From: an uncultured Paracoccaceae bacterium
Lineage (GTDB): Bacteria > Pseudomonadota > Alphaproteobacteria > Rhodobacterales > Rhodobacteraceae
Assembly (NCBI GenBank): GCA_947500135.1
Contig: CANMQX010000004.1
Location: 124,001-188,000 of the forward strand
Direction: 5' to 3'
DNA length: 64,000 bases
Positions 22,261-43,673 of this stretch are shown here, piece after piece; positions within the stretch are counted from its first letter, which is position 1; every line of letters begins with the position of its first letter. The notes beneath the pieces are model-generated. The model saw nothing but the letters and a program-made list of their open reading frames with translations, was not told where the DNA came from and did not search any database. Both the position numbers and the translations under genes were made by a program.

Positions 22261-22298
22261 CGCCCGCCCCACGTCGTCGCAAACCGGGGTCAGGTTTG

Positions 22299-22380: not shown

Positions 22381-22402
22381 TGGTGGTGAACGTCAACACG
22401 AT

Positions 22403-22572: not shown

Positions 22573-22575
22573 GGC

Positions 22576-23462: not shown

Positions 23463-23610
23463 TTTACCGAACCTCCGCGTCTATGCTGCGGCCCCATGGA
23501 ATCACAGGCATTCCTATCAATTTGGCGAAAGCGAACAATGAAAGGCTCGGTATCTGAGCTCGAGGGACGTACATGACCAGAACGCAAAGACTCCCAAGGG
23601 AACATCGCCC

Positions 23611-23877
23611 CGGCGCGCCGCTCAATACATTCGCATGTCCACCGATCACCAACGCTATTCGACCGAGAACCAATCTGATGCGATCAAGCACTACGCAGAG
23701 CAACATGGCATCGAGATCGTCCGCACCTACTCAGACCAAGGTAAGAGTGGATTAAATATCCAGGGCAGAGATGGGCTCAAGCAGCTCATCGATGATATTC
23801 AATCCAGCCAGGCAGATTTCGAAGTGGTGCTTGTCTATGACATCAGCGAAAGCAGTCATTCGCTGCAATTGCAATAA
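23611..23877 (+). pseudogene. N-terminal fragment of a large serine recombinase
   Basis: The translation RRAAQYIRMSTDHQRYSTEN continues through 'QSDAIKHYAEQHGIEIVRTYSDQGKSGLNIQGRDGLKQLIDDI' to FEVVLVYDIS. This is the resolvase N-terminal domain with its YIRMS catalytic-serine motif. It breaks off at VYDIS, where intact homologues continue RWGRFQD, and runs into unrelated sequence and a stop. No proper start codon lies upstream in this frame. It is a truncated relic and unlike the intact recombinase at 59.2 kb. Confidence 0.8.
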
Positions 23878-24227: not shown

Positions 24228-27200
24228 GTGAACCCCATTGTCTTGGTCCCAAGCATTAAAGAACTCATACCGCTGGGTGCCGACGCTGTTTTTGTTGATC
24301 GCGGCGCTGTCAGCCTAGTTGCTAATTTGAAAGCGCCGTCGGACGGTCCTATCGCGGCGGTGACTGTCAATAAGAGAATCGAGGGTTACGCTTGGCTTAG
24401 CGCGATACTGATGGATTCGTTGGGAAGCGAGAGGTATGCCACAGCGATTGAGCCGGGGCAGCAGTGTGAGCTTATGCTGCGTTCGAATGCCACGCTGACC
24501 GATGCGCAGATCGATCAGCTGTTGCGAAATCCGCGCGCGCTGGATGTTGCGGCCCAGATTTCCTTTGGCGACGGAGGAGCGCCGGTCGACGTTGATTTCC
24601 GGCTTGCGTCGCCGTCTTTCGTTACCACCGTACTACACGCTCCGGTCTGCGAAGCAATTGAACCGGCAGATACGCGCATTAACCATTTAGATGTCTTGAG
24701 GGGTGGTGACAAGAGCCTCGGGTTTCTGAAGGTCACGATCCCGGAAAGCCCCCTTCAATATGCGGTTCCAGGGCCGAACGGGCCGACCCGAAATGCCCCC
24801 GAATTGAGCGTTGACGCGTTTCTAACACGCACACATGAAGTGAAAGGGATGACTGGCGGTCCGCCGCAAAACATATCTGTGGAGGTTGTTCCCAAGGGCA
24901 AAAGCCGGACATCGCCGTCGCCCAAAACGATCCAGTTGAAGCCACGCAGTGAGTACGTGTTTGAGGCGCGCGCCAAGGTGGCGGAACTCAGCCCGGATAC
25001 TGATGGGCGTGTGGTACTTCGGCTTCAATGGCGGTTTGAAGATGGCGCGGATGGGGTCCGCGGACAGGCGTCTTCGCGCTTGGCTGAGGATCAACGTATT
25101 GAATTGACGCAGAAGGATAGCGACATCCTTCAGGTACAGCTGGAAGGGTGCACAACGGCGTCTCCTGGCGGTCCGGAAGAGGTGCTGACACCTATTATGT
25201 TGCCCGGTGACATACTTGAGGTGGTGCGCGCAGAACAATCGCTTCAAATTCGGGCAGATCACGGTGGCTCCGCAGAGCAGCGTGTCAGACTGGCGATCTG
25301 GTTTTATCGGCGCGAGATGCCTGTTGTGACCCTGCAGGCTGCGATCGGCTTTGCCGATACAGCCGACATACCGGAGGCGCAGAAAGTTTCGGTTGAGAAG
25401 TCTTTTCTGAGGGTGGCACCGCTTGATCCGCTTCATTTTGAATTCGGGCTGGCTGATCTGCTTGCCAAGGCAGACCTAGAAGAAGCTCGCAACGGCATGG
25501 AATTGCGTTTCGATATCTCGGCAAGCACCGAGGATGGGGTGCTCCCGCAAAAAGCCTTCAATGGCCGCATTACGGTTCCAGTGCTGGCACCCGAGACAGC
25601 CAAGGAGTTTTCGGCCTGTCTCGATCTCGGGGCATCTGCGACGACTTTTTCGTTCGGACGTGCAAACGCGCTTGGGCGGTCGGGCACCGTCCCGCTGGGG
25701 GACTTTGTCTACTCGCTAACGCGGCAGCCGTTCGCGGACTACAACCCGGATACCCCTGGAAAGAACGCGCTTTTGCCGATGGATATTGGTCTTTCGTCAC
25801 AAACCGGGCTGCGCAATCAGGCCGACCCGTTGTCGCTCGGGACCTTGGACCGGTTGGGTGGCAGCGAAGACGCGATACGCAACAGACTTGTGCATTTCGA
25901 CCGAACCTATGACGTGTCGGTGCCAGGGCCAAAGGTCGGCGCGCATGAGCAGCTGCTGCCATTGGTCAACGACCTGAAGAGGCGGCTGCTGTCCAAGGGC
26001 AAGATGCCCATTTTGCCTGAGATATATGCGCATACCAAGGATGGTTTGAGCCTGGTCTCTGAGATCGACCTTTATGTGCTGCTGCGGGACGTTCTTGACG
26101 AGATTGCGGTGTATCTGATCCCGCGCGCCATGCTTCTGTCGGAGGATTTGGTGCAGGATGAGGTGTATTTTGGTGGAGTGAACACCGGCGGAGCCGAGAC
26201 CTACAAGGAATTCAATGATCTGAATGCCTCCAATCTTGATCTGGTGATCACGCATCCCACTCGGCTCGACAAGAAACTGTTGCGGGAATTCAAAGATGCA
26301 GGTCGACATTTCTTCCGGCAGCTGATCGCCGAAGGAAATGCTGAAGAGAAATGTGAGCCGATCTTTGTGTCGGAGGCTCTCGCGGCAGCGCACTACTGTG
26401 TTTATGCAGGCGTTCCGGAAGAGGTCCGCAAAAGCTACGCTGGTCGCACGACGCATCTTGCCGTCATCGACATGGGCGCAAGCACGTTTGACGCAATCAT
26501 TGTCTCCGTCACCTGGGGCTCTGCCGGGATTGCAAAGAGCTGGGAGGTGAAATCGCATTTCGGTGAGCGTGTCGGCGGACACAATTTGGACGACGCGCTG
26601 CGGTCGATCGCGCTGCAGGCTCTTGACGCTGAGCTGGACCCGACCGACCCGAACGGGCTGCGGCTCGACGAAGACTATGCGCGCTCTGAAATCCGCCTCA
26701 GCGACGCGCTTGATCGGGCGATACAGAATGCGAAAATCAGCCTGTGCGATGCCGTGCGAAGTGCGACGAAGCCCGGCCCCTACCGCTGGGAGGGAAGTTC
26801 GGTTCCACAGGACCTGAATGTAAGTCTCAGGGGCATTCTGTTGCCGCCGCAGGTCGGCTCTGCAAACCGACGCAACCACCGACTGGCCACTCAGGATGCC
26901 CCCCATATTGTCTACGACGCGGAAGCCCGCCACTATGTGCTTCGTATCCCGCGCGACATCTTGTTGGCGCATAATGACGTGAACACAGAGAATGCCGAGC
27001 AATGGAAGCGACCGTCACCACGCAACCCTGCGATGGTCGCGCGCCTTCTGGGGGCCGGTATTCCGAGCATGATGGCAAGAGAGGCAGAACGCCTTGGCCT
27101 GCGCGATGTCGAATGGGTGGTCACCGGCCGAACTGCCTTGTGGCCGCCGATCTATCAGGCGGTCTTGGACACGGTCTCGTCATTGGGCGGAGGCAAGGTG

Positions 27201-27698
27201 CGGTCCCCCCAGCCTTTCGGTCCGGATGAAATGAAAGAAGTTGTCGTTCATGGTGCGCGCGCGTTCCCGCAAAGCGCGCTCACATTGACCGAAGATCAGA
27301 TCTACACGGTGGCCGTGATCTCGGAAGATGCGATCCCGCGTCCCAATGATCAGGGCTACAGAATCCTTCCGATTATGACCGTGACATACCTAGACGATCA
27401 GCGAATTCGTCTGACAAGCGATGGCGACGAGTTCGAAATCAAGTCGCAAGGCCACCTCAAGCTGGCACTTGCCAAGCCCGGATTGCACAATAAGGGTGAA
27501 GGTAGCGCAATAACGCTGGCAGAAATCCAGGGGCTGTTCGACATGTTCGGGCTTGATATCTATGAAAGCGCTCAAGAACTGCCTGCCAAGAACCAGGAAA
27601 ACCTCGTAGTCCAGACTGAAAAGCGGTCTGGCGGGGTGCTCTACAAGTTCGGAACGGTGTCGCATTTTATCGGGCCGAACAGGCCGGGGAACAGGTGA
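24228..27698 (+). CDS. HSP70/actin-fold ATPase with long N-terminal beta-rich extension
   Basis: A 1156-residue protein, first gene of the large operon. Residues ~1-455 are beta-rich and unidentified. Residues ~460-1120 read as an HSP70/actin-type ATPase. Phosphate-1 motif is CLDLGASATTFSFG (D466, G468), a connect-like region is LVITHPTRL, and SEALAAAHY stands where HSP70 has its 'EPtAAA' helix. Phosphate-2 is VIDMGASTFDAII (D748, G750), followed by GERVGGHNLDDAL and an adenosine-pocket-like VVTGRTALWPPI. No signal peptide or membrane helix is seen, so it should be cytoplasmic. Size and layout recall large SrfB-type HSP70-like proteins, but I could not establish that family. It may polymerise or act as a switch driving the membrane proteins downstream. 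GTG start at 24228; the stop overlaps the next start (GTGA). Confidence 0.75.
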   Translation: MNPIVLVPSIKELIPLGADAVFVDRGAVSLVANLKAPSDGPIAAVTVNKRIEGYAWLSAILMDSLGSERYATAIEPGQQCELMLRSNATLTDAQIDQLLRNPRALDVAAQISFGDGGAPVDVDFRLASPSFVTTVLHAPVCEAIEPADTRINHLDVLRGGDKSLGFLKVTIPESPLQYAVPGPNGPTRNAPELSVDAFLTRTHEVKGMTGGPPQNISVEVVPKGKSRTSPSPKTIQLKPRSEYVFEARAKVAELSPDTDGRVVLRLQWRFEDGADGVRGQASSRLAEDQRIELTQKDSDILQVQLEGCTTASPGGPEEVLTPIMLPGDILEVVRAEQSLQIRADHGGSAEQRVRLAIWFYRREMPVVTLQAAIGFADTADIPEAQKVSVEKSFLRVAPLDPLHFEFGLADLLAKADLEEARNGMELRFDISASTEDGVLPQKAFNGRITVPVLAPETAKEFSACLDLGASATTFSFGRANALGRSGTVPLGDFVYSLTRQPFADYNPDTPGKNALLPMDIGLSSQTGLRNQADPLSLGTLDRLGGSEDAIRNRLVHFDRTYDVSVPGPKVGAHEQLLPLVNDLKRRLLSKGKMPILPEIYAHTKDGLSLVSEIDLYVLLRDVLDEIAVYLIPRAMLLSEDLVQDEVYFGGVNTGGAETYKEFNDLNASNLDLVITHPTRLDKKLLREFKDAGRHFFRQLIAEGNAEEKCEPIFVSEALAAAHYCVYAGVPEEVRKSYAGRTTHLAVIDMGASTFDAIIVSVTWGSAGIAKSWEVKSHFGERVGGHNLDDALRSIALQALDAELDPTDPNGLRLDEDYARSEIRLSDALDRAIQNAKISLCDAVRSATKPGPYRWEGSSVPQDLNVSLRGILLPPQVGSANRRNHRLATQDAPHIVYDAEARHYVLRIPRDILLAHNDVNTENAEQWKRPSPRNPAMVARLLGAGIPSMMAREAERLGLRDVEWVVTGRTALWPPIYQAVLDTVSSLGGGKVRSPQPFGPDEMKEVVVHGARAFPQSALTLTEDQIYTVAVISEDAIPRPNDQGYRILPIMTVTYLDDQRIRLTSDGDEFEIKSQGHLKLALAKPGLHNKGEGSAITLAEIQGLFDMFGLDIYESAQELPAKNQENLVVQTEKRSGGVLYKFGTVSHFIGPNRPGNR

Positions 27699-28492
27699 TG
27701 GTGATGTCGATCGAGTTGTATCTTGCTGTTGCGGCAAGCGTGGCATTCGTGCTGTGCGCGGTGCTCTTCCATATCTGGCGCCGACGGGCCCGGGCGGGCG
27801 GGCGGCGTATTGAAGAGCTCAGCGCGCAGAACTCCAAGCTTCGCCGCGCGTTCGGCGAGCTCGCAGGATGGGGCGAAGACGGCAAGCTGCCCAAGGATTT
27901 CGTTGAAGTCATCCGCACAAACCTGACTAGGCGCGAGGCCGTCGCGATTGAGCAGACCTCAGACTGGGACGGCTTCATGACCGTTATCGCGGATGCAATG
28001 GCGAAGACGGTACCGCCTGACGCCCGGTTTGTTGGTGGTGGGGCGACCTCGCAGGATCGGCACGAACGTCTGGTGCGGACGCTCCGGACCTGGACCGCCG
28101 ACGAGGATCGCGCGCAGGCAGCGCTTGTGAATGGCGAGTTGAACTATATGTTTCGTATGCATTTGAGAATGCAGGCCTATAATCCGCGTGACCCGGCTGC
28201 CCCTGTGTATGCTGTGGCGGTGCAACTAGTCAGCTATCTGCTGGATCGCGAGGGCATGACAGTCGCATTGGCATGGCCGATGTCCGTTGCAGTACCGACC
28301 GTTGAACAGACTGCCGATGACGTAGATGGTCTGAGCGGCATCGAGGCCGTGCGCTCTGTTTGGGACGAAGCGCGCACCAAACTGGACGCGCCGCTCAACG
28401 GGCTTGTCGTGGATTGTGTTGCACCGGGCTGGAGCGTTGATGGCGCGCTTCGGCAGCCGCCGCTCGTTCTTACAATGAACAGTTTCTGGTGA
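27695..28492 (+). CDS. Membrane-anchored protein of unknown function
   Basis: A 265-residue protein with one N-terminal membrane helix (about residues 5-27), then a basic stretch HIWRRRARAGGRR that predicts a cytoplasmic body. A coiled-coil-prone segment follows (IEELSAQNSKLRRAFGEL). The rest is a mixed alpha-beta domain with no motif I can name. Its GTG start overlaps the stop of the ATPase gene by four bases, so the two are translationally coupled and likely partners; it could be the membrane anchor of that ATPase. Alternative in-frame starts at 27698 or 27704 would not change the helix. Confidence 0.65.
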   Translation: MMVMSIELYLAVAASVAFVLCAVLFHIWRRRARAGGRRIEELSAQNSKLRRAFGELAGWGEDGKLPKDFVEVIRTNLTRREAVAIEQTSDWDGFMTVIADAMAKTVPPDARFVGGGATSQDRHERLVRTLRTWTADEDRAQAALVNGELNYMFRMHLRMQAYNPRDPAAPVYAVAVQLVSYLLDREGMTVALAWPMSVAVPTVEQTADDVDGLSGIEAVRSVWDEARTKLDAPLNGLVVDCVAPGWSVDGALRQPPLVLTMNSFW

Positions 28493-28508
28493 TGAGGGCC
28501 TCGCAGTC

Positions 28509-30008
28509 ATGAAATGGTTCCGCGTATCACGGTCCGATCAACCGACCAAACCGCATATTCAGCTGACCGGCGTTACGGGCAACGCGAACGATACAGAAAT
28601 CTGGCGACCGAAGATTTTTGAGGAGGTCTCGACGTTTCGGTTCAATGGGCCGCACAAGTCCGACACCGGTAACTTGCTAAAGCGCTGGCTTGCAACTGAC
28701 CGTTGGCTCGGCGCAAGGGCGAGCCGCAGGACTGAAAGATACGCCATTGCACAGGCTATGCGGCACTACACACGCACCGAGATGGTCGCGGAACGTTCCG
28801 GCCGGCAGGAGTGGCAGGTTGCGCAGGATTCGCTGATTTGCGCCAGTGCCGTTGACGGGCCATTTGATGGGGAGTTGCACGATGGACTGGAGACGAGGCT
28901 ACTCGGGCATCTCCAGGACAACCTGAAGGGTCTTTTTGATCCGGAAAAGGGGATCAGTGTCCGTTGTATTGGGTCTGCGGCGCTGCCCAAAGAGACTGTG
29001 TCCATGTTTTTGGGCGAACATGTCTTTGCGCCACGCTCTGGTACTGTGCCGATTGGCTCCCTGACGCTACAGATTGACGGAGCAGCGCAGGCGTCGCGCA
29101 CCGAGCCTGTGCTTCTGAACGGCGAGCCCGGGGCACTCTATTCAGGGCAGTCGGTTATCGGGTTTGCTCTGCGCGGCCAGGGGGACACCATTCTGAGTCC
29201 GGTTGAGCTGGACTTGGGCTTTCTACACTCCTACTCGTGTTTCATTTCGGTGCGGGCCGACAAGTCAAAGAACCCGGAGTTTCCATTCAGAGTCGATCGG
29301 TATCAGGGACCAAGGGGCAACGCGCTCCCGCGGTTTACGCCAGTTCAGCCGACCGAACCATGTGATGCGGAGTGGAAGCTTCTGTTCTTCGGTGAGGACG
29401 ATGCGCAAGAGGGAAGGCTCAGGCTTGTTCTCGACAAGCGGTTGTCGCGATTGCATGTAAAGCGCCCAGCGCTGGCAGAACACCAGAAAATAGTCGAAAT
29501 CGTTGGGATCAATGTGACACCCGATTTGCTGGCACGCCCAGCTGAACGGGTCTGGTTCGAGATGACTCCGGAGCGCACATTACGCCAGTCCAGTTTGCAG
29601 GCGAAATCCATGTCGCTGGTCTGGATATCTGATGGGAGCCGCGCTTATCGCTATGACTGGGCCGACTACCAGATCCGCGGAGATGCGAAGTCAGGCCTTG
29701 CGCCGTCGCCGGGAGGCGGTGTCCGGCTGGGGCCGGCATGGACCGGCGGATCGCTCGGCTATTTGAGGGTGCCGGATGCTGACCAGCGTCTGAGGTATTC
29801 GCCGGAATGGGAAGCGGATGAAGGGTACCATGTTGACTGGCTTAATGCGGCCGCGGTTGTGGATTTCGGCGACCGGCGTGTCGGGCTGGCAGACGCAATG
29901 CACGAAGCAGGCACAGGCGCTGATTTGATCGGGCCGGATCTGATTGCGCGGCTGCGCGCTGCGGAGGGCCCACTAAAGCTTGGGCCGTTCCTGCTGGCGC
30001 TGCCATAA
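28509..30008 (+). CDS. Soluble beta-rich protein of unknown function
   Basis: A 499-residue protein without signal peptide or membrane helix. Residues ~100-175 form an alpha-beta segment ('AVDGPFDGELHDGLETRLLGHLQDNLKGLFDPEKG'). The centre ('GQSVIGFALRGQGDTILSPVELDLGFLHSYSCFISV') could be a divergent FHA-like beta sandwich, which would fit a phosphopeptide or scaffold role. This is speculative, because the Gly-Arg and Ser-x-x-His signature residues are not clearly present. It lies 16 bases after the previous stop and 18 bases before the transpeptidase gene, inside the operon. Confidence 0.6.
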   Translation: MKWFRVSRSDQPTKPHIQLTGVTGNANDTEIWRPKIFEEVSTFRFNGPHKSDTGNLLKRWLATDRWLGARASRRTERYAIAQAMRHYTRTEMVAERSGRQEWQVAQDSLICASAVDGPFDGELHDGLETRLLGHLQDNLKGLFDPEKGISVRCIGSAALPKETVSMFLGEHVFAPRSGTVPIGSLTLQIDGAAQASRTEPVLLNGEPGALYSGQSVIGFALRGQGDTILSPVELDLGFLHSYSCFISVRADKSKNPEFPFRVDRYQGPRGNALPRFTPVQPTEPCDAEWKLLFFGEDDAQEGRLRLVLDKRLSRLHVKRPALAEHQKIVEIVGINVTPDLLARPAERVWFEMTPERTLRQSSLQAKSMSLVWISDGSRAYRYDWADYQIRGDAKSGLAPSPGGGVRLGPAWTGGSLGYLRVPDADQRLRYSPEWEADEGYHVDWLNAAAVVDFGDRRVGLADAMHEAGTGADLIGPDLIARLRAAEGPLKLGPFLLALP

Positions 30009-30026
30009 CGGAAAGGTTGGGTTGCT

Positions 30027-32858
30027 TTGTTTAAGCTTTTGGAAAAGTTCTATTCGGTTGCTGCGATTGTCTGTCTCGGCGGGCTGATTTTCCTCGCCAC
30101 GATCTGGGTAATAGGCAAGACCTCGGACACGCGACACTGGATGAAGAACGCGGATGTGCCGGTGGTCTCGGACCTCGACACGCAGCTTTTGCGGCGGTTC
30201 CGTGAGGCGGGAATTGTCTGGCCGGCGCGCAACGATACGCAGCTTGCCATCCGTTACCCGCATTGCACAAGGATCGTGCGCGAAGATCCTGCCAGCGCAG
30301 CGACACTGCCCATCGTGCCTGACCCGGCCGCCACGCGGAGCGAACTGCGCGCAACCGAAGATGCGCGGATCGCGATGGTTAACGAATTCTGCCAGTCCGA
30401 TCAGGGACATCGAATTCGCAACGAGATCGATCTGTTTAATGCCGGTCAGCTGCTACTGGCGGCGCGGGACAACAGGGCCAGTGTCAGGAACGCAGGCAGC
30501 ACCATGGACGTGCAGTGCAGCGACGGGCGCATTGTTCAGGCCCTGTTTCCGCCGGCTGATTGTCTGCGATCCGACTGGTCCGTGCGGCTGCCGGGGATCG
30601 GCGCGGCACTGGGGGACCTGTCGGACAGCGCTATTCCGCTGCGCAACTACGTCTTTATGGCGGACCCATCTGCGGCGCTGATGTCGGACTGGGCGGTGGC
30701 CTCGCCGGCGACGGGCGCGGGCACTGGCCGGCCGCCGGTGCATGAGCTCGCAACGGACGCTCAGCTGAAAAGTGGGCTTTTCGTAGTTCAGGTGATCGGA
30801 GAGGTCGAAACCATCACTGTCGATGGAAGCGAACTGGTCCATAGCGGCGATGCGACACAAGGGTTGCTGCGCAATGATGCGGGGCAGGTGCTGCGCGTGC
30901 GGGTTGATAAGCTGTGTAGCGGGCGCAGCGGGATGCAGGCGCTGTGCGAGGGGCTGAATGCCTCCACGCGCGCCCAATATAAGACGCCAGTGGCATACCG
31001 TGTGACAATCAGCGGCCCGTCGGGTGCTGATTTTTCTCTTGTGGTGGAGGCGCGGCCAAGCGCGCTTTCGGTCGATATGATGATCGGGGCCGGTATTCTG
31101 CAGCGTTCGTCTGGGAAGCGACTGACCGGATCGGGGCAGATCCGGCTGGCCTGCACCTCGGACGCACCGTTCGAAGCGCCGGCGCAAGCCGAAGGTGAGG
31201 CGGGAACTGGGTGCGATATCGTCTGGCTGCGCCCCCGCGATCCGAACCCCGAGAATGAGGGAACGCGGCGCAGCGCGCCGTTCCAGTTGGCCATCGATGG
31301 AGTGGAAATCCTCGATGAAGACGGAAATCTGACGGCAGAAGGGTTCCTGCTGGGTTATGGCGATCTGCTGGGCTTTGGGGTCGAGGACCCTGGCTCCTTC
31401 GCCTCGCTGCTGAGCCGTCAGAGGCTGCCGGACGATTTCACGCTGACGGTTCGCCCGGCGATGCAGCGGCTGATCGAGCGGAGTGTTGTGAGCGGCGGGC
31501 AGGTGCCGTGCCTCGAGAACGAAAATTGCGGTGACCGGCGTGTTGACCTCATTGTGCTGGATGCGGACGGGGAGGATGCTGGTGAGCTTCTGGGGTTTGC
31601 CTCGCTGCCGCGGTCGGGCATCGGGCTGTCGCGCTGGGATCTGATCGCGTTGGACACAGCCGCACCTGCGCGAAGCCCCTTTGCTGCCAGTGCCTGGCGC
31701 GCCCATGACGGGACGGCTACGCCGGGTTCGACATTCAAGATGGTGACATCGCTCGCAGGTGCTGAACACGCGATGGCCACGTCCGACTCGCAGCTAGAGG
31801 CGCTGTTGCTGGGTAATATGAGCGAAGGCAATGTTGCGCGGATGCTGGGGCTGGCGGGGAGCCCGAACCTAGAGGCGGCGAGGGCGGGGCGCGAAGTTTG
31901 CAAGCATGACAGCGCCTTGGGAGAGGCTGGCCGCCGGGATGTTCTGCCGGTGCCAACGTCAAATGGCGCTGAAACTGCGCGCTGCATCGCAAATGCAAGC
32001 GACGCGCCGTATCTCTCGATCGCTCAAGGCCGGTGCGAAACGCTTGGCCGAAACAGCAGTGGAGTCTGCGAGGCGATGACCAGATCCTCGAACCTTTATT
32101 TTGGTGGGTTGGCGCTCTATATGGACAGCTCCCGCCTGTTGCTGCGGGGCAGCCAAGTCGAGCATCGCGAAACGGCCGATGACCTGGCGATGGTGCAGAT
32201 GGCTGCTCGGCTGTTCGGGCGCGACACTGACAAAGGAGCGGCGTTGTCGGTGTTTGATGCGCTGTCGCCGCATTACGGCGCAAATGTGCGGTCGCGGTCT
32301 TCGCCCGTGACGTTGGCGGTTCGGGATGTCCCTGCAGACCTGAACCCGCGGCGTCTGGACCTAGCACTGTCCGGGATCGGGCAGGCCGTGAGTGCTACGC
32401 CGCTTGCGATGGCGGCGATTTCGGCCTCGGTCGCTGAGGGGCGGGTGATCGAGCCGCGCATTATCCCGCTGGAGCTGCGCACCCGTCTGGGGGCTGCACC
32501 GCCAGCCAATGTTCCGCTGCTGTCCGGGCAGGGGAGCGGTGGGTTTTCCGATGAGCTTCTTACCCATCTGCGCGCGGGCATGGCCAATGCCGTTAGAGAG
32601 GGGACAGCGAGAGGCGCGCGTGGTGGATTGAACCAGGGGCTTGCGCATTTCAAGACGGGCACCGCCCAGATCTTGATCAGTGGAGCGCGAACGCAGGCTG
32701 CATGGACCGTGGGCTATGTCGAAGCGCCTGGCGGGAATTCTAACATTAAGCAGCGCATTTCGATTGCATGCCGCGTGGCGCCTACAAGCCAAAGCAGCGG
32801 ATTGTGCGCCCGAATCGTGGGTGACTTGGTGCGCGACCTGAATGCGGGGATGCCCTGA
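30027..32858 (+). CDS. Large bitopic penicillin-binding transpeptidase
   Basis: A 943-residue protein with one N-terminal membrane helix (residues ~10-32), a long periplasmic region, and a C-terminal transpeptidase domain holding all three active-site motifs. These are S568-T-F-K571 (in PGSTFKMVTSLAGAEHA), S687-S-N689 (in MTRSSNLYF) and K876-T-G-T879 (in HFKTGTAQ). This is the penicilloyl-serine D,D-transpeptidase signature of class B PBPs, so it is expected to cross-link peptidoglycan in the periplasm. Spacings are wider than usual: 119 residues between motifs 1 and 2 and 189 between 2 and 3. The ~530-residue stretch ahead of the domain is unidentified. The TTG start at 30027 follows GGAAAGG. 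It is followed directly by a SEDS-type gene, the classical FtsW-FtsI/RodA-PBP2 partner arrangement. Confidence 0.85.
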   Translation: MFKLLEKFYSVAAIVCLGGLIFLATIWVIGKTSDTRHWMKNADVPVVSDLDTQLLRRFREAGIVWPARNDTQLAIRYPHCTRIVREDPASAATLPIVPDPAATRSELRATEDARIAMVNEFCQSDQGHRIRNEIDLFNAGQLLLAARDNRASVRNAGSTMDVQCSDGRIVQALFPPADCLRSDWSVRLPGIGAALGDLSDSAIPLRNYVFMADPSAALMSDWAVASPATGAGTGRPPVHELATDAQLKSGLFVVQVIGEVETITVDGSELVHSGDATQGLLRNDAGQVLRVRVDKLCSGRSGMQALCEGLNASTRAQYKTPVAYRVTISGPSGADFSLVVEARPSALSVDMMIGAGILQRSSGKRLTGSGQIRLACTSDAPFEAPAQAEGEAGTGCDIVWLRPRDPNPENEGTRRSAPFQLAIDGVEILDEDGNLTAEGFLLGYGDLLGFGVEDPGSFASLLSRQRLPDDFTLTVRPAMQRLIERSVVSGGQVPCLENENCGDRRVDLIVLDADGEDAGELLGFASLPRSGIGLSRWDLIALDTAAPARSPFAASAWRAHDGTATPGSTFKMVTSLAGAEHAMATSDSQLEALLLGNMSEGNVARMLGLAGSPNLEAARAGREVCKHDSALGEAGRRDVLPVPTSNGAETARCIANASDAPYLSIAQGRCETLGRNSSGVCEAMTRSSNLYFGGLALYMDSSRLLLRGSQVEHRETADDLAMVQMAARLFGRDTDKGAALSVFDALSPHYGANVRSRSSPVTLAVRDVPADLNPRRLDLALSGIGQAVSATPLAMAAISASVAEGRVIEPRIIPLELRTRLGAAPPANVPLLSGQGSGGFSDELLTHLRAGMANAVREGTARGARGGLNQGLAHFKTGTAQILISGARTQAAWTVGYVEAPGGNSNIKQRISIACRVAPTSQSSGLCARIVGDLVRDLNAGMP

Positions 32859-32859
32859 T

Positions 32860-36162: not shown

Positions 36163-36203
36163 AATGATGTCGGCGTTTGGGGGTCGAACAATGGAATTTG
36201 GCT

Positions 36204-38555
36204 ATGTTTCGTGAAGAGATGACAAAATCGGATCGTGGAATCCTCGCTGTTTTGTGGATTGTGGCGCTTGGCGGCCTCGGGGTGACGATGAACGCCCTGT
36301 TCAGCGGTGCACTGGAGCTCTTTTCAACGCCAGGTACCAGCGACGCCCTCGGCATTGCGGCGATGCTGACCTTGCTTTTTGGCGGGGGCTTTGTTGCTCT
36401 CTCGGTCAGTTTTGCGCGGGTGGTGACGTCCCGACGGTCGAACTTTGGGACAATAATTACTTGGGCCCTTGCGATGTCTGTCGCGTTGTCGGTGATCGCT
36501 TTTTTCTCTTTCCGGTTCTGGTATGACGAGGCGAATAGTTCCCTTAATCTGGACAGCTATGAGATCTCAGATGACATCACCGCCGTTGCCGAGATAAACA
36601 CGCGCGTCTCACGGGTGGCGACTGCTGAACTGGAACGAGCAACGCGTGATTATGAGGCCAACCCCGCCGTGCCGGACTACAATTCTCAGATGCTGGCGAT
36701 TTCGGAAGAGCTGGGCCAGGGCGAGGGACTGCGTCTGGTCATCGCTGGTCTCGCATCGAACCGCGAAGAGCGCCGGGCCGCGGCAGAGGCGCTGGAAGGC
36801 ACTCTTGAAGGTCGGGTCGAAGAGCTTTCAAGGACAATACGTGATCAGGAGGCCCGTCGCCCCATCTTGGAAACTGACTTTGCGCAGGCTCTTGAGGCGC
36901 TTACCCCCTATGGGGCTGGTAACGAAGAGTGGCAAACCCTGCTGAGCCAGACACGCGCCGCCTTTCTGTTGGAATGCCCCGAACCTGCGACTGACCCTTT
37001 CGAGCCGGGGTTTGTGCGACCGGAGCGATTTCAGACCGGGTGTGGCCCGCGCCAGCAGGTTGAGCAGCCACTGCTGGCCGTCGAATTGGAAGCTCAGTTT
37101 GTCGAAGAGGGGGTCGAACAAGTCTGCAGAGAACGCAATTCGAACGGGAACATTCGAAGTACTGGCGCCGGGCCGTGCACGGATGTCATGCTGGCGAACT
37201 ATTTTCAGCTTCAGAGCCTGATTGCCGAGTATGAAGTCGCGACCGAAGAGCTTGAGACGAGCCAGGACCTGATTGAACGCAGCCGCCAGCAGCTGCCACT
37301 AGCGGAGGATGATCTGGAAGCAGCGAAGACCGAGTTGAGCGGCATCAACCAAGAAGAGGCCTTGGCAAGGAGCACCTTGCAACCCTTTCAGTCGGCGATT
37401 GCCGCGTTCCAGCAGGAACCTACAACGGCAGGTCTGGCGACGCTCAGGGACGACTGCCGGGATGTGATCAGCCTCGCGCGTTCGGGTGCCGGCTTCGATG
37501 CTGACACCGCGCCCGATGCGCTGTCGATCGATTGTACCGGGCGTGGTCTGGACCAGGTCTTGGGCACGTTCGCAGGAGCCAAGGAACGTTCCGTAGCTGT
37601 GGTGCTGGCCTGCGATGCAGGGCGCGAGACGATTGATCAGGCGCGGAGCGTTCTGCGGTCCTCAACGCAGCAGTTTTCAACCGGGGAACTGTCGGAGACG
37701 ATTAATACCCTGAAGACGGGCGCGATTGATCCCTGCCTCGCTGCGGCGCGGTCCAACGGGTTCGATGTGGCCGACCTAACGACCGAACTGGACAGGCTGG
37801 TGGCCGAAATCACGCGAAATAGGTCAGGTGTAGCCGCAGCACTTGATCGCTATGCTGAAATGCTAACTCTTCGTTCAAACATTCCCACGTATGCTGTGCT
37901 CATCTTTACACTAATCGTGGAGCTTTGGTTCTTTGGCATGAAAGTTTATATCAACAATTTCATGCGGTCACGGACAGGTGACTATCAGCGGAATCGTATG
38001 CTCGACGATGCCGATCGCGCAGCGGTCCAGGCGATTTTGACCGAAGTTCAGTATCGTAATAATGGATCGCCATACCTGCCGGCGAGCTACGCTGATGAAT
38101 ACTGCGATGGGCTTCGCGGGCGGATGAAACGCCTGATTGCCCAGTTCAGCGCTGAGAAGATGACACTCATCAACCGTAGTACTGGCGATGTTGATTTCTC
38201 GACTGATTTTCTGCTGGAGTTGGATGCTTTGGTGAAAATTCCTGCGGAGAATGGGTTTGTAAAGCCGGTTCCGCCGATTGAACCAGCAGGGCCCGCGGCA
38301 CAGGATGGTACTGATGGGGGCGAAGCTGTACCAACTATTTTTTCGGGTTCTCCTCAAAATGATAGTCTTAGTCCTAAGCAGAATCGGCGGCCAGTTGTAC
38401 ACACTGGCGCCGACGAAATGCCTTCACCGACATTCAGGCCCAATGATTCAGCGCGGAGCAAACCGCTGACAGGGCCCCAGCAGCGAAGCCCGGTTGCGAC
38501 GACAAACGCGATGGCAGATCGTATTATGAACGCGCATGCTCGTCGACGTCGCTGA
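36204..38555 (+). CDS. Membrane protein with periplasmic coiled coil, unknown function
   Basis: A 783-residue protein. Three N-terminal membrane helices (within residues ~10-105) are followed by a long region rich in heptad-like Glu/Leu/Arg sequence, for example 'VATEELETSQDLIERSRQQLPLAEDDLEAAKTELS', with several spaced Cys that suggest disulfides in the periplasm. A fourth membrane helix lies at ~562-585, and a ~200-residue C-terminal tail is probably cytoplasmic, with a Pro/Ser-rich end. It may be a scaffold spanning the envelope for the PBP-SEDS pair; that role is inferred from operon position and topology. ATG at 36204 chosen; the frame opens at TTG 36177. Last gene of the rightward operon, facing the convergent gene at 38654. 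Confidence 0.65.
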   Translation: MFREEMTKSDRGILAVLWIVALGGLGVTMNALFSGALELFSTPGTSDALGIAAMLTLLFGGGFVALSVSFARVVTSRRSNFGTIITWALAMSVALSVIAFFSFRFWYDEANSSLNLDSYEISDDITAVAEINTRVSRVATAELERATRDYEANPAVPDYNSQMLAISEELGQGEGLRLVIAGLASNREERRAAAEALEGTLEGRVEELSRTIRDQEARRPILETDFAQALEALTPYGAGNEEWQTLLSQTRAAFLLECPEPATDPFEPGFVRPERFQTGCGPRQQVEQPLLAVELEAQFVEEGVEQVCRERNSNGNIRSTGAGPCTDVMLANYFQLQSLIAEYEVATEELETSQDLIERSRQQLPLAEDDLEAAKTELSGINQEEALARSTLQPFQSAIAAFQQEPTTAGLATLRDDCRDVISLARSGAGFDADTAPDALSIDCTGRGLDQVLGTFAGAKERSVAVVLACDAGRETIDQARSVLRSSTQQFSTGELSETINTLKTGAIDPCLAAARSNGFDVADLTTELDRLVAEITRNRSGVAAALDRYAEMLTLRSNIPTYAVLIFTLIVELWFFGMKVYINNFMRSRTGDYQRNRMLDDADRAAVQAILTEVQYRNNGSPYLPASYADEYCDGLRGRMKRLIAQFSAEKMTLINRSTGDVDFSTDFLLELDALVKIPAENGFVKPVPPIEPAGPAAQDGTDGGEAVPTIFSGSPQNDSLSPKQNRRPVVHTGADEMPSPTFRPNDSARSKPLTGPQQRSPVATTNAMADRIMNAHARRRR

Positions 38556-38653
38556 GAGCGAGAAAGTTTGGAAAATAACAGGGTCTTGGCCGCTCGTACC
38601 AATTAAGATGCGTCTTGCCTTGTACGCAACCTGGGCCGTAGCTCATCGAACCT

Positions 38654-41143
38654 TTACGCGCTTGCCTGTTGTGACAATCTCACCGCCAACTCAGCCCCGG
38701 CGGGCCAGGAATTCAGCGACTTCTTAAGATTCCGGTAGCAATCGGATGACGTTTGCATTGATGCAAGAACTGCGCTGCAGGATTGGTACTCCCGCTCCAT
38801 CTCATAGACTGCATAGCCTGCTACGATTGCGCGCCCGAGGTCCTTGTCCGACGGAGTTTCAAGGCCTAGGCTGTCCACCTGACTTTTGAGAGCATCGCGT
38901 TTCTTTACGATTTCCGGGAGCAGCATCTCCTTAGAAACCGAACCTGTGATACGTTCAAGCTCAATCAATTTTTCGGCGGTAGGTGCGCCATGTTCAAACG
39001 CGTCTGACATGATCTCGACTAATTCCTTGTGTGCTGGCCTTTTCTCATCGGGGTACAATTCCGCGATCAATTCCAGAATGACGGTCTGAACATCTGGTGC
39101 ACCATTGGCGGCATCAAGTTGCGCCAGTAGGGTATGTGCCTTCTCAGCTTTCGCTGCATCACCTGATGTCAGCATGGGTTCAAGCATTTCGTATGCCGGA
39201 CCCTTGTCGTTTAGACCTACTGGGTCGTTTTTGGACGCGTCATCCTTCTTCATCGCTTGAATAGTCCGCATGATTTCAGCCATTTCAAGCTGATGTTGCT
39301 CCACCTCGGTGGCAGCGGACAAAATCTCCGCGGCAGTAAACTTTTTCTGGGCGTCGTTCTCTAGGATGGCGCGAAGCGCAGCAGAACAGCCACCAAGGGC
39401 CTTACGTCTTACGCCGAGTTCACTTTGCGCGGAATTGATGCGCGTTAGAGCGTCGCCAACGTTTGACAGAGTATGAGCCGATCGGTTGAAAGCCAGATCA
39501 GGAAGCCATTGCAAAGCAGCTACCAGTTGGTCGGTATCCTTCTGTGCCCAGATTTCGGCTATCAGCCGCAGCTGTAAGTTAATTTCTGTGGCGGTCCAGT
39601 TAAACTCATGAGCCGGAACAACAAGGCTGAGACCCCGAGACAGCAGGTCAGAACCCGCCTTTGAGCGGTGGCGGGTCGGTCGGGCTAGTTTATGACCCCG
39701 GAAAAGCGACCAAGCGGCGATTGCCTGCGCAGGATCGGCCATGAACTCCTGCCAAAGGTCGATGGACGCAAAAGTCTTGCCACCATAGAACCTGGACACC
39801 TCGGCGAAAGCCGGCACCAAATGCCCTGCATCCCGTGAAGCACCCGTTCTTACGAGCCAGTCTTCGAGGCTTCGGTCTAGATCCTGCGACTTGTTCTGCG
39901 TGTCGTCGTCCTCTGCCACATGCCGCATTTTTCGGACCATATCGGCAACTATCGGATCTGAGGACGCAGTTTGCATAATTCGTTCGAGACCGACTTCGAA
40001 AGTTGCGAGACCGTCATCGGACGCAGGCGATCCGTCAACGATGATGCGTCGTTTCCGCAAATCGACGATGGTCAGCAGATCGCCCACTGACACGTGTGGA
40101 ATTCCGACGGTCTCGTCAACTCCCATCGGACCAATTTCTGGTTTTGGAATTGTGACGGCAAAGTCATCGAAACCCTTGTGCGTGGGATCAAGTATTATCT
40201 GCCTCACGGAATTCTGAACGACATCTGCGAAGTTGTCTTTCGCAGCTGCGATATCAGCTTCGTATTGCGCCGGATCGTATTGACCTTCGTCTACAGACCC
40301 AACCACCGACGCCGCGAGCTCGATAAACGCATAAAATGCGATCCTGTTGATTTCCTGCCAGTCTGCATCAGACAACCCCAGTGTTGACTTCAATTGCTCT
40401 TGAAGTCGTGCGAGGCCGCGTGCATGAATCAATCGCAGGTCCTTGAGTGTGTTTTCGTCATCGCCGCTGATTTTGATCGAGACGGTTCGGATTCGGGCCT
40501 TGGCTGCTTCCGTTTCGATCCCGGAAGGATGGTTTGGGCCGAAAACACCTTGATTGGAGCTCACGTATCCCGCCGCGGGGCTGATGTGCAGCGTTCCACG
40601 TGAGCCAGGAACAATCATGGTCGCTGGACCGATATCTTGGAAGGTTGGCGCGGCAAGCTCGTCCAACGGACCGACAATTGCACGCATTTCCCAGACCGAT
40701 GGCAGCTGATCCCATTCGGCAACCGGAAAATCATCCGGCGTCACAAAAGTCGCCGAAGATACATTTGGTTCGTCGTTTGCGGCCGTTTTCATGTAGATGC
40801 AGATGCGTTCGCGGTCACCGGTGGCTTCGAGCAGAGCCTGGTTTAGCCGCAAAACCTTAATAGGGTGGAAACTGCTGTCGCCGTCAAATATCAGGATTTC
40901 CACAATGTCCTGCGCGCGCAAGGAGCTTGTTGCAAAGCGCATCCCTAGCTGGCTGCGGCGGGTTGGATCGGGTTCGATCGAGCAAACACCGATCAGCTGC
41001 GTCTTTTGATCGCGATGGACCAGCGCCACGCAGAGCGCGCCGGTTGAGATGCCGGTCGTCGAGTCAAAATTTGCTCCGATCACGGCATTGCGTGCACCAT
41101 CCCATAGCATCCAGACTTGCTTGGACAAATCGGCGTAATTCAT
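38654..41143 (-). CDS. Large soluble protein of unknown function, divergent from the GTPase
   Basis: An 829-residue protein without membrane segments. The N-terminal ~150 residues ('LSKQVWMLWDGARNAVIGANFDSTTGISTGALCVALV') form a beta-rich domain. The central part contains helical stretches, and the C-terminal third is almost all helical ('AAEILSAATEVEQHQLEMAEIMRTIQAM'). Large GTPase-associated proteins in bacterial conflict systems have a comparable size and layout, but I could not match a named family. ATG at 41143 is chosen; the frame extends to 41206, but that would overlap the divergent GTPase frame. It shares a ~90-base promoter region with the GTPase gene, which suggests joint regulation. 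Confidence 0.6.
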   Translation of the reverse strand: MNYADLSKQVWMLWDGARNAVIGANFDSTTGISTGALCVALVHRDQKTQLIGVCSIEPDPTRRSQLGMRFATSSLRAQDIVEILIFDGDSSFHPIKVLRLNQALLEATGDRERICIYMKTAANDEPNVSSATFVTPDDFPVAEWDQLPSVWEMRAIVGPLDELAAPTFQDIGPATMIVPGSRGTLHISPAAGYVSSNQGVFGPNHPSGIETEAAKARIRTVSIKISGDDENTLKDLRLIHARGLARLQEQLKSTLGLSDADWQEINRIAFYAFIELAASVVGSVDEGQYDPAQYEADIAAAKDNFADVVQNSVRQIILDPTHKGFDDFAVTIPKPEIGPMGVDETVGIPHVSVGDLLTIVDLRKRRIIVDGSPASDDGLATFEVGLERIMQTASSDPIVADMVRKMRHVAEDDDTQNKSQDLDRSLEDWLVRTGASRDAGHLVPAFAEVSRFYGGKTFASIDLWQEFMADPAQAIAAWSLFRGHKLARPTRHRSKAGSDLLSRGLSLVVPAHEFNWTATEINLQLRLIAEIWAQKDTDQLVAALQWLPDLAFNRSAHTLSNVGDALTRINSAQSELGVRRKALGGCSAALRAILENDAQKKFTAAEILSAATEVEQHQLEMAEIMRTIQAMKKDDASKNDPVGLNDKGPAYEMLEPMLTSGDAAKAEKAHTLLAQLDAANGAPDVQTVILELIAELYPDEKRPAHKELVEIMSDAFEHGAPTAEKLIELERITGSVSKEMLLPEIVKKRDALKSQVDSLGLETPSDKDLGRAIVAGYAVYEMEREYQSCSAVLASMQTSSDCYRNLKKSLNSWPAGAELAVRLSQQASA

Positions 41144-41235
41144 TAGTTGTTGTCCCCAGCAAATACCAGCTAAGTTGAGTGTAGGCAGGGCCACTAACCT
41201 TGGCAAGCCAGCGTTGGGTAGATGGACGAGAGCTG

Positions 41236-42153
41236 ATGTTGTTGAGGAAAATTACAATGGTGGGCGCCAAGTCTTCGGGAAAGACGGTAGCTTTGGCGCA
41301 GCTCCTTGATGCGGTGCGCAACAATGCCAGTGGCTATACGCCGGATGTATTTGAAAACCCTATGCCACTGACGATCAGTACCGAGGACATGATCGATCAA
41401 GGTCGGCTGCTGAACGGCGCCCTGCCTGGGGGGACGATCGATGCGCTGGAGGCGCGTTATGCATTGAATGTAAACGTTCCGGGGAACGGGGATGCGCCAA
41501 CTAGCGAGGAATTTGCCATACTGGACGTGCCCGGGGAAATATTCAGGAGGTCTGAGACTGGGAGGACATCTGATCTCGCTGATCAGTCGCCGGAGTCAAA
41601 GGCAGCGCGTGCGGAGTATGAGTCCTGGATCGAGGAGTCGGTAGGTATTGTTTTCTTTGTCCCGGCCACAGGGTTTGCCAACAACGCGCTCTTTACAATG
41701 CCGCGTCAGGAATTGTCGGCAATCCTGAAAGCAAAACATGACGGGAAGTGCCCAAACCTTGATCGCCTTATCATCGCTATAGCGATGTTTGATGTGCTTC
41801 TGCTTCATCTCGGGGATCTTGCGTTGGATGTCGCGATCCGTCCTGACTCGGTAAAGAAAATTCTCAAGCTGTGCCTTCGACGGGTAAAACTGCAGGCACA
41901 GGACATGATGAGCAAGGCAGGCTTTAACGAGCTTGATATCAAAATCACGCCTATTTCAGCGTTCGGGTTCAACAGGGAGTTCGGTTGCGCCAATGTAGAC
42001 CCGAACGCCTTGGAAAAGGATCAAAGTGGCATTCGGATGAAGCACCAGCGCAACAGTGAAACCTTGCCTTACCTTGTTGGTGATCCGTTCCTTTGGGCCG
42101 CCTTTGAACATGAGACACCGTTCATGTTTGACCTTAAGGAGATCGTAGGTTGA
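41236..42153 (+). CDS. P-loop GTPase-like protein
   Basis: A 305-residue protein. A perfect Walker A, G10-A-K-S-S-G-K16-T17, lies at the N-terminus. A switch-II-like DVPGE (D97-E101) follows a hydrophobic strand (FAILDVPGE), as in TRAFAC GTPases (DxxG). The G4 position shows AIAMFD instead of NKxD, so nucleotide specificity is not certain. The following ITPISAFGFN may be the G5 strand. Such small GTPases with unusual G4 occur in bacterial conflict and SrfC-like loci. ATG at 41236 with GGACGAGAG upstream is preferred to the TTG at 41200, because the P-loop then starts at residue 10. Its stop overlaps the TTG start of the next gene. Confidence 0.75.
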   Translation: MLLRKITMVGAKSSGKTVALAQLLDAVRNNASGYTPDVFENPMPLTISTEDMIDQGRLLNGALPGGTIDALEARYALNVNVPGNGDAPTSEEFAILDVPGEIFRRSETGRTSDLADQSPESKAARAEYESWIEESVGIVFFVPATGFANNALFTMPRQELSAILKAKHDGKCPNLDRLIIAIAMFDVLLLHLGDLALDVAIRPDSVKKILKLCLRRVKLQAQDMMSKAGFNELDIKITPISAFGFNREFGCANVDPNALEKDQSGIRMKHQRNSETLPYLVGDPFLWAAFEHETPFMFDLKEIVG

Positions 42154-43127
42154 CGCAGACGGACAATGCGAGACTCGTGCCCCGAACGCAGATCCGCGTT
42201 GAACGCGGGATTTCTGGGAAGTTCGTTATTTCTGAGGGCGGCGCAGAGGTGCCTGATGGGCCGTACGGGTTAATCGCTCAGTCTGACAACTTTCCTCAGC
42301 ACTTTACCACCAGATCGGGCGAGCGGCTAACACTTGATAAGCTCGCAAAGGCCATGCGTGGCGACACGCAACTGTCCGCAAAGGACATTGACCTAACATT
42401 GCGAAGTGTTGGTACCCTACAGTTTCTTACAACTGTTGAAGGTTTGTTCGTCGCGCGTTTGAGGACTCGCTCGCAGAGCGGGGAGGGAGGGAGCGACCGG
42501 GCTTTTGAAGTCGCTCAATTTCTTTTTCTGAAAGATGTGTGCGACTGGCGGTCTGTGCCGGCGGGCTTTTTTCGCTTTTGCTGGAACGAGCTTCGAGCGA
42601 ACCCGCCGGTACAAGGTCGAAAATTCGTGGACCCGCTGGTCTTTGCTGTTGATGACGATGTCGAGGCGTATATGCTTGATGGCATAGAACAAATTGTAGC
42701 TAATTTGACCGAAACCGGAACGCTTGGAGAAGTTCCGGTGAGTGAAGAGCTTCAATCGCTGCTGTCTTTGCTACAGCACAACAAGACGGAAGGATATTTT
42801 CCTCTTGAAACCCAATATTTTGTGGCCGCCAGCAAATCTGAGGTTCCAACCGTTTGGGCGCTAGATCTGGCAGCAGCCCTTGCGCGTGTGGACGAGCCTG
42901 AATGGGGACGGCGGCATTTTCGGATTAATGTGGGATTGCCACCGGCGTCCACGGGGCCGGCCCTGCATTTTGTAGAAAGCCGAAAAGACTGGGTGCTGCA
43001 TGGCAGCGGCGCAAATGTTGACCTCGGCGGTTTTCCCGGCAGCCCCAGCGCCAACGATGCGCACCCAGAAGCAAAAGTGATGATAAGCAGTGGGCGCCGA
43101 GTTGGCGTAGATCCGATCACAATCTGA
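42150..43127 (+). CDS. Protein of unknown function coupled to the GTPase
   Basis: A 325-residue soluble protein starting at TTG 42150, overlapping the GTPase stop by four bases (TTGA). It has mixed alpha-beta composition and no recognised motif. Segments such as 'VPAGFFRFCWNELRANPPVQGRKFVDPLVFAVDDDVEAYM' look like a folded globular domain. The tight coupling suggests it binds or regulates the GTPase. It is the last intact gene before IS remnants, so the locus probably ends here. Confidence 0.6.
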   Translation: MTQTDNARLVPRTQIRVERGISGKFVISEGGAEVPDGPYGLIAQSDNFPQHFTTRSGERLTLDKLAKAMRGDTQLSAKDIDLTLRSVGTLQFLTTVEGLFVARLRTRSQSGEGGSDRAFEVAQFLFLKDVCDWRSVPAGFFRFCWNELRANPPVQGRKFVDPLVFAVDDDVEAYMLDGIEQIVANLTETGTLGEVPVSEELQSLLSLLQHNKTEGYFPLETQYFVAASKSEVPTVWALDLAAALARVDEPEWGRRHFRINVGLPPASTGPALHFVESRKDWVLHGSGANVDLGGFPGSPSANDAHPEAKVMISSGRRVGVDPITI

Positions 43128-43370: not shown

Positions 43371-43422
43371 TGAAAAGTCCGGTGTTTTTGGTTAGCCTGT
43401 TTTCCAACTGAGGAGACAGACG

Positions 43423-43673
43423 ATGAAGAGAAGCCCTTTCAGCGGAGAACGGACATTTGGATTTTGAAGGAGCATAAGACTGGCGCGTCGGCTGCTGACC
43501 TATGCCGCAAGCATGGCGTGAGCGATGCGACCATTTACAAATGGCGATCCAAGGATGGCGGCATGGAAGTGTCCGATGCCAAGAAACTGAAGGCGCTTGT
43601 CGGCTATGGAGCCGAGAGCTGTAATTTGGCGATGAAAAGGCAAACGGCAGCTTTGTCCGCGTGGCGGAACTGA
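43423..43673 (+). pseudogene. Frameshifted IS3-family OrfA
   Basis: ATG at 43423 starts MKRSPFSGE, then a one-base shift leads into WILKEHKTGASAADLCRKHG and VSDATIYKWRSKDGGMEVSD. This is the helix-turn-helix OrfA of IS3 elements ('MKRSRFSEEQIIGILKEHEAG...'). The leucine-zipper end is replaced by unrelated sequence, so the element is dead. Confidence 0.8.

What the first reader, a model, noticed from the sequence alone, without database searches (positions are those of the whole stretch)
24228..43127. Candidate undescribed nine-gene envelope system: HSP70/actin ATPase + PBP-SEDS + GTPase
Six genes in one rightward operon (ATPase, TM anchor, soluble beta protein, PBP, SEDS, TM coiled-coil) meet a divergent arm (large soluble protein; GTPase; coupled unknown). 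Overlapping stops and starts tie neighbours together. The combination of an actin/HSP70-fold ATPase with a wall-synthesis pair imitates the MreB-RodA-PBP2 logic, but with a second nucleotide switch and five proteins I cannot name. The borders are IS relics on both sides, so it travels as a unit. Possible roles: localised wall growth, an envelope-spanning device, or defence triggered by the GTPase.
Basis: partly seen in the sequence, partly recalled or inferred. Interest (0 to 1): 0.95.

Follow-up and report, generated by a model that had tools for sequence, protein, structure and literature searches.

The report
Mobile HSP70- and GTPase-linked wall synthase
Nine neighbouring bacterial genes recur together in unrelated genomes and appear to build cell wall under the control of a chaperone-like ATPase and a GTPase, a combination we did not find described.

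Summary
Nine genes lie at 24228-43127, and the same nine recur together elsewhere. Ten loci have all nine by homology: the window, Puniceibacterium, five Hoeflea, a Rhizobium and, with a weak seventh gene, Methylobacterium aquaticum and an alphaproteobacterial MAG. Two Neomegalonema loci have eight. In Hoeflea the nine-gene block is conserved while the right flanks mostly differ (left flanks not held), and all nine genes are under purifying selection.

The host has two canonical SEDS proteins besides, so this is an extra synthase. SEDS relatives outside this type often lie near a Ser/Thr kinase (39 of 57 loci); nine-gene and Bosea types do not (0 of 29 entries).

Best reading: an accessory, switch-controlled peptidoglycan synthase. 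Its trigger is unknown.

The parts
24228..27698 (+). g1: HSP70-fold ATPase, 1156 aa (about 460-residue N-terminal part of unknown fold, then nucleotide-binding domain)
   Evidence: Profile of 12 relatives matches DnaK nucleotide-binding domain, E 1.1e-7, profile positions 681-852; phosphate-1, phosphate-2 and adenosine motifs kept in 20 of 20 near-full-length members (of 22)
27695..28492 (+). g2: membrane anchor, one TM then about 240 aa predicted cytoplasmic; overlaps g1
   Evidence: Hydropathy, arginine-rich stretch after the TM; homologues L121 and L122 begin with signal-peptide-like sequence, read by eye; only weak library hits
28509..30008 (+). g3: soluble protein, 499 aa; its C-terminus is FHA-like by eye in some kinase-type relatives, not recognisably so here
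   Evidence: HMM family; no Pfam family at E below 0.1 in 19 members (one hits Yop-YscD_cpl at 0.14); FHA link not significant
30027..32858 (+). g4: class B penicillin-binding protein, 943 aa, one TM, transpeptidase domain at the C-terminus
   Evidence: Pfam Transpeptidase E 4.9e-13; PBP2/MrdA E 3.6e-10; SxxK, SxN, KTG in 33 of 33 members of at least 780 aa (of 38)
32842..36162 (+). g5: SEDS glycosyltransferase with an added TM, 402-residue predicted periplasmic domain and 3 further TMs ahead of the 10-TM core
36177..38555 (+). g6: membrane protein, 3 TM, a 463-residue predicted periplasmic domain holding 8 of 9 Cys, 1 TM, 200-residue C-terminal part
   Evidence: Hydropathy and cysteine positions in 7 members; HMM family
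38654..41206 (-). g7: large soluble protein, 850 aa (likely start inside the listed ORF)
   Evidence: Homologues divergent from g8 in the loci with a g7 match; no family over cut-off; AlphaFold2 model unusable, pLDDT 40.7
41200..42153 (+). g8: GTPase, 317 aa
   Evidence: Walker A and DxxG kept in 11 of 11 aligned; hhalign to double-GTPases 93.5%, E 2.3e-7 over 161 columns
42150..43127 (+). g9: unknown soluble protein, 325 aa, overlapping g8
   Evidence: HMM family of 10; no Pfam family over cut-off in 10 members; no link to GAP1
22263..23874 (.). left border relics: IS integrase piece, EAL piece (minus strand), truncated serine recombinase
   Evidence: Pfam rve E 0.0012 (below cut-off), EAL 4.7e-6 (below cut-off), Resolvase 9.1e-19 on separate pieces
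43374..43670 (+). right border relic: IS transposase OrfA piece
   Evidence: Pfam HTH_Tnp_1 E 1.1e-12

Best explanation
The nine genes encode an accessory, inner-membrane peptidoglycan synthase with its own control unit. g5 (SEDS) polymerises glycan and g4 (class B PBP) cross-links it, with g6 as a periplasmic scaffold (inferred). In the cytoplasm the HSP70-like ATPase g1 is tethered by the anchor g2 and contacts g3; its ATP cycle switches the synthase between silent and active. The GTPase g8, with its partner g9 and the large divergent protein g7, supplies the second, upstream switch that sets when or where the complex fires. In many related modules without g1, a Ser/Thr kinase lies nearby and may hold the controlling place; here nucleotide switches may have taken it over. 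Shown: gene set, co-occurrence, selection, profile identities of g1, g4 and g5, fold of g5, intact active sites, the kinase contrast. Inferred: complex formation, topology beyond hydropathy, direction of control, and that the polymer is peptidoglycan. The trigger is unknown; localised wall synthesis or wall repair under envelope stress is my preferred guess.
Against: No experiment. The kinase contrast is confounded with taxonomy: most kinase-bearing core-only loci are Oxalobacteraceae, and 18 of 57 show no kinase (many on short contigs). Bosea-type loci keep g1, g3, g4, g5, with only a weak g8-like ORF (E 3.1e-5, no Walker A match, missed) and an unassigned gene divergent from it in the one locus extended, so some parts are dispensable or greatly changed. 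One MAG with g6 shows no g1 (G947). Complex formation was not modelled.
Confidence: 0.5

Rival explanations
1. A defence or conflict system: the GTPase senses an invader and, with g7 and g9 (and the HSP70-like ATPase), triggers wall remodelling or cell death through the SEDS-PBP pair. It would work like the published GTPase-centric systems that pair double-GTPases with HSP70.
For: g8 resembles double-GTPases, and the published systems sometimes include HSP70 and TM proteins (passages of PMC7159879). The window copy lies in a mosaic region with a C5 methylase, an MvaI/BcnI-type endonuclease, phage terminase and recombinases. Patchy distribution.
Against: g9 does not match GAP1, the constant partner. 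None of the nine matches a PADLOC defence model convincingly (three weak hits, best E 0.0024). Hoeflea proteins are under purifying selection (dN/dS 0.04-0.18) with no variable effector seen. Defence neighbours were looked for only at the window.
Confidence: 0.2
2. An envelope-spanning device (secretion, adhesion or surface-polymer assembly) in which the SEDS-PBP pair rebuilds wall around a structure, or makes a polymer other than peptidoglycan.
For: Large predicted periplasmic mass: g4 about 910 aa, g5 N-domain 402 aa, g6 463 aa.
Against: No outer-membrane, pilus, needle or exported-substrate family recurs beside the nine in the loci clustered. The PBP keeps a complete transpeptidase active site in 33 of 33, which points to peptidoglycan.
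Confidence: 0.15
3. A member of the SrfABC group, whose SrfB is also an actin/HSP70-fold ATPase.
For: g1 and SrfB profiles share 134 columns around the phosphate-2 motif, 86.9%, E 4.2e-6.
Against: The host genome has no match to the SrfB family model and g1 does not hit it; the shared part is the general ATPase core, not full length. SrfB loci were held with about 1.5 kb flanks at most, so co-occurrence with SEDS or PBP genes there was not tested.
Confidence: 0.04
4. A chance run of unrelated or decaying genes in a mobile-element graveyard.
For: IS and recombinase relics on both borders.
Against: Co-occurrence in at least six lineages, intact active sites, purifying selection in Hoeflea.
Confidence: 0.01

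Closest known systems
Rod complex / elongasome (MreB-RodZ-RodA-PBP2-MreCD; composition recalled)
   Same: An actin/HSP70-superfamily ATPase with a SEDS glycosyltransferase, a class B PBP, a membrane anchor and a large periplasmic-domain protein
   Different: g1 is HSP70-like with a large extra N-terminal part, not MreB; the SEDS is only a distant profile relative of the host's canonical pair; adds a GTPase and g3, g7, g9
Core-only SEDS modules found here, many with a kinase (Oxalobacteraceae, some gamma-, alpha- and deltaproteobacteria)
   Same: Same SEDS family (g5), often g3 and, in some, g4; closest SEDS relatives found outside the nine-gene and Bosea types
   Different: No g1, g2, g6-g9 in the loci held; 39 of 57 have a Ser/Thr kinase, and of the two scanned one has an FHA protein (L069) and one a PP2C phosphatase (L070)
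Actinobacterial PknB-PstP-FhaAB-RodA-PbpA cluster (recalled, not tested here)
   Same: SEDS and PBP encoded with a cytoplasmic control unit
   Different: Control by kinase, phosphatase and FHA proteins rather than HSP70-like ATPase and GTPase
GTPase-centric (DO-GTPase/GAP1) systems, eLife 2020 e52696 (PMC7159879, passages read)
   Same: A divergent GTPase next to a partner gene, sometimes with HSP70 genes and TM proteins
   Different: g9 is not GAP1-like by profile; one GTPase gene, not a pair; no SEDS/PBP in the passages I read
SrfABC (SrfB)
   Same: Large HSP70-fold ATPase with non-canonical extra regions
   Different: Only the ATPase core aligns; family model absent from the host genome

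Membership tests
SEDS glycosyltransferases | 10-TM RodA/FtsW fold | tested here: met
SEDS glycosyltransferases | Essential Asp in the large periplasmic loop (role recalled) | tested here: met
   Asp953 aligns with HTDF of host RodA, kept in 74 of 74
SEDS glycosyltransferases | Polymerises lipid II | not testable with these tools
   Needs biochemistry
Class B PBP | SxxK, SxN and KTG motifs in a transpeptidase domain after one TM | tested here: met
   (33 of 33)
HSP70 / actin-fold ATPases | Phosphate-1, phosphate-2 and adenosine motifs | tested here: met
   DnaK E 1.1e-7; 20 of 20
HSP70 chaperones proper | Substrate-binding domain after the ATPase domain | tested here: inconclusive
   No match outside the nucleotide-binding part among the 60 of 116 sequences shown; the extra mass lies N-terminal; fold not predicted
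Rod complex | ATPase belongs to MreB | tested here: not met
   The 60 best solved structures shown (of 116) are all HSP70/DnaK, none MreB
DO-GTPase family | Match to the DO-GTPase2 family model over its cut-off | tested here: not met
   15.7 bits against a cut-off of 27; 3 of 10 members hit weakly, best E 0.012. Profile-profile similarity E 2.3e-7, without a control against other GTPase families
DO-GTPase/GAP1 systems | Adjacent GAP1 protein | tested here: not met
   g9 vs two GAP1-like proteins from L131 and L132: probability 0.16%. Their GAP1 identity rests on position next to DO-GTPase genes; the template had only two rows
SrfB | Match to PF07520 over cut-off | tested here: not met
FHA-containing proteins (g3, g5 N-domain) | FHA domain | tested here: inconclusive
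   hhalign 5-6% probability, E 0.006-0.008 for core-type g3 and g5 N-domain; nothing for nine-type or Oxalobacteraceae g3
Known anti-phage systems (PADLOC 2.0.0) | Convincing match to a defence model | tested here: not met
   Three weak hits, best E 0.0024 over g2 residues 4-59, which include its TM

The most novel reading that the evidence does not exclude
A previously unrecognised, horizontally mobile third kind of bacterial wall-synthesis machine: a SEDS-PBP synthase whose activity is set by an HSP70-like ATPase and a GTPase through several protein families of unknown fold. It would have evolved from a kinase-controlled module by replacing phosphorylation with nucleotide switches, and serve an inducible task (wall repair, defence or building an envelope structure) separate from growth and division.
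Probability: 0.4. Interest if true: 0.9.

Novelty: new variant of a known kind. Interest (0 to 1): 0.76.

Why it matters
SEDS-PBP pairs are known as growth and division engines. A recurring, patchily distributed set that couples one to an HSP70-like ATPase and a GTPase would show that wall synthesis can be packaged as an accessory, switch-controlled function and moved between bacteria. It offers five protein families without names, a possible natural experiment in swapping kinase control for nucleotide-switch control, and environmental hosts (Hoeflea, Puniceibacterium) in which to test it.

Tried and rejected
SrfB: family model absent from the host genome, and only the ATPase core aligns. The hit in G336: a 415-aa HSP70-fold protein (YegD-like by eye) with no other member of the nine in the 20 kb fetched. 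GAP1 identity of g9: no support. FHA in g3 and the g5 N-domain: suggestive by eye (GR...SRRH in core relatives), not significant; the predicted topology places the g5 domain in the periplasm, which also speaks against a phosphothreonine reader there. g7 fold: AlphaFold2 gave pLDDT 40.7, so no fold search. Genes in g7's position in G803, G814, G815 and G436 could not be shown homologous to g7 (best E 0.0011 for L123). Single-protein searches found nothing in plasmids, viral contigs or the first genome-contig scan; the SEDS alignment opened the family (119 relatives, best 80 kept). In the class sample the g1 profile hit only the window's own genome, 1 of 385 at E 1e-20, scoring at most two candidates per genome, so prevalence is a lower bound. 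A clean empty site could not be shown: both flanks are conserved in 8 of 8 same-genus relatives searched, but lie on different contigs in six and about 200-225 kb apart in two. Residues 1-520 of the SEDS model had no convincing match in the VIA comparison, which barely tested them; that is not evidence of a new fold.

Limits of the Hoeflea comparison: default blastn, hits over 300 bases; the loci begin about 0.3 kb before g9, so left flanks were not tested, and right flanks of 2.4-3.8 kb were. In L034/L038 the middle of the block (about 7.9-15.3 kb) gave no listed alignment, and in L034/L037 and L034/L039 alignments stop short of the g6 end.

In one search the 20 nine-type entries include second pieces of four genomes (L120-L123), so they stand for 16 genomes, and not all of these loci hold g1 itself. 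The SEDS tree used 36 rows (34 of 85 family hits plus two canonical), quick method, with long-branch warnings for L084 and the outgroup. SrfB rows L006 and L007 were left out of the alignment after a frame error.

Full report
Observation. The window (G000:C4:124001-188000) carries nine consecutive ORFs at 24228-43127, called g1 to g9 here: g1-g6 rightward, g7 leftward, g8-g9 rightward. Of the nine, Pfam and NCBIfam recognise only the PBP over a curated cut-off (Pfam Transpeptidase on g4); g8 has a sub-threshold double-GTPase hit, and PADLOC gives only weak hits.

Recurrence. A GTPase search of 394 family genomes hit three besides the window. In one of them, G485, all nine genes are present; its contig has the length of one of Puniceibacterium sediminis. 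A SEDS alignment then found 119 relatives in a collection of 84,980 species genomes, of which the tool kept 80. Iterative HMMs at E 1e-5 gave all nine families in seven loci: the window, Puniceibacterium and five Hoeflea loci. Fetching neighbouring DNA completed the set in a Rhizobium (g7 E 1.9e-44, g8 1.5e-59) and, with weaker g7 matches, in the MAG AP_29 (1.8e-4) and Methylobacterium aquaticum (4.6e-5). Two Neomegalonema loci have eight plus an unassigned large gene in g7's position. Nine loci of Bosea and kin have g1, g3, g4, g5; in the one extended locus a weak g8-like ORF without Walker A and an 816-aa gene lie divergent upstream. A gammaproteobacterial MAG has g1-g4 on one contig and g5-g6 on another. 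Among 29 loci clustered, no other family recurs beside the nine across lineages; one generic short-chain dehydrogenase pair lies well away. The arrangement varies: in Puniceibacterium the g1-g6 arm is inverted relative to the window, and in Hoeflea g9 precedes g1 while g8 and g7 follow g6. g7, or the gene in its place, is divergent from g8 in each locus where I saw both.

Unit and selection. Among five Hoeflea loci (10 pairs), DNA similarity of 76-86% runs from just before g9 to the g7 stop, with gaps around the g6 3' end and the g6-g8 spacer, and with a larger gap in the L034/L038 pair. Right flanks mostly do not align; exceptions are a displaced 2.2 kb shared by L034 and L038, and about 0.6 kb past g7 in L038/L039. 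Left flanks were held for under 0.3 kb and so were not tested. dN/dS is 0.04-0.18 for all nine genes, 10 of 10 pairs each. Of 60 genomes searched (36 of the window's genus, own included) only the window's own has g1. The window borders carry mobile-element relics on both sides, and the Rhizobium locus has a tyrosine-recombinase-like ORF about 0.65 kb beyond g7 (read from sequence). No PLSDB plasmid matched. So the block probably moves, but no vehicle is shown.

Relation to other SEDS modules. The host has two separate canonical SEDS proteins, one beside a PBP2-like gene and one beside a murG-like gene (read from sequence). SEDS from nine-gene- and Bosea-type loci form one clade (SH-aLRT 99, 14 of 36 rows), with Bosea nested inside, so Bosea probably lost parts (quick method, long-branch warnings). 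A kinase domain lies in the fetched DNA of 39 of 57 core-only loci and of 0 of 20 nine-type and 0 of 9 Bosea-type entries (16 genomes behind the 20). Pfam confirms a kinase in both core loci scanned (L069, L070), an FHA protein in L069 and PP2C in L070. The GTPase is present in 7 of 7 genomes with g2/g6-type systems and 0 of 6 without at E 0.001, although a weak g8-like ORF was later seen in one of those six, a Bosea. The HSP70-like gene is in 5 of 6 genomes with g2/g6-type loci, in the one Bosea, and in 0 of 7 core-only genomes. I chose these genomes; they are not a random sample. The kinase contrast is confounded with taxonomy because Oxalobacteraceae dominate the kinase-bearing set.

Mechanism. 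The simplest reading is an accessory peptidoglycan synthase: g4-g5 catalytic, g6 periplasmic scaffold, g1-g2-g3 an ATP-driven cytoplasmic clamp or gate, g8 with g9 and g7 a GTP switch upstream. Enzyme identities are shown by profile and, for g5, by fold; the complex, its direction of control and its trigger are inferred. Defence is the main rival, favoured by the mobile setting and the double-GTPase resemblance, disfavoured by the lack of GAP1, of convincing PADLOC matches and of variable effectors.

Literature. I searched the held PubMed Central papers and found no description; for PMC7159879 I read passages, for the rest only search listings with the starts of abstracts. Subscription papers and preprints were not searchable, so absence from print is not proven.

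Noticed in passing
L069 to L109 (Oxalobacteraceae and others): A SEDS protein of the same family lies near a Ser/Thr kinase in many Duganella and Massilia genomes, with an FHA protein near it in L069 and a PP2C phosphatase in Cocleimonas (L070): an apparently kinase-controlled SEDS module in Gram-negatives.
   Followed up: partly
window:45306-60832: Mosaic mobile region: DNA methylase, terminase, C5 methylase, MvaI/BcnI-type endonuclease, M78 peptidase (RmrA/CapP-like by PADLOC), LysR regulator, and a large serine recombinase next to tRNA-Gln at 61000.
   Followed up: partly
window:21600-21660: A roughly 50-base repeat downstream of cmk occurs in at least 20 further places in the host genome (82-92% identity).
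   Followed up: no
window:17433-17480: SAM/SAH riboswitch, 61.3 bits.
   Followed up: no
L131:6165-10717 and L132:9312-13619: Neighbouring GTPase genes, one matching DO-GTPase2, with a GAP1-like neighbour (by position) in a same-family genome (G189) and another proteobacterium (G853).
   Followed up: partly
L120:7384-7953: Tyrosine-recombinase-like ORF (by eye) about 0.65 kb beyond g7 in the Rhizobium copy of the system.
   Followed up: no
L065:15406-18703: The Neomegalonema copy lies near glmS- and glmU-like genes (read from sequence), which make wall precursors; possibly coincidence.
   Followed up: no
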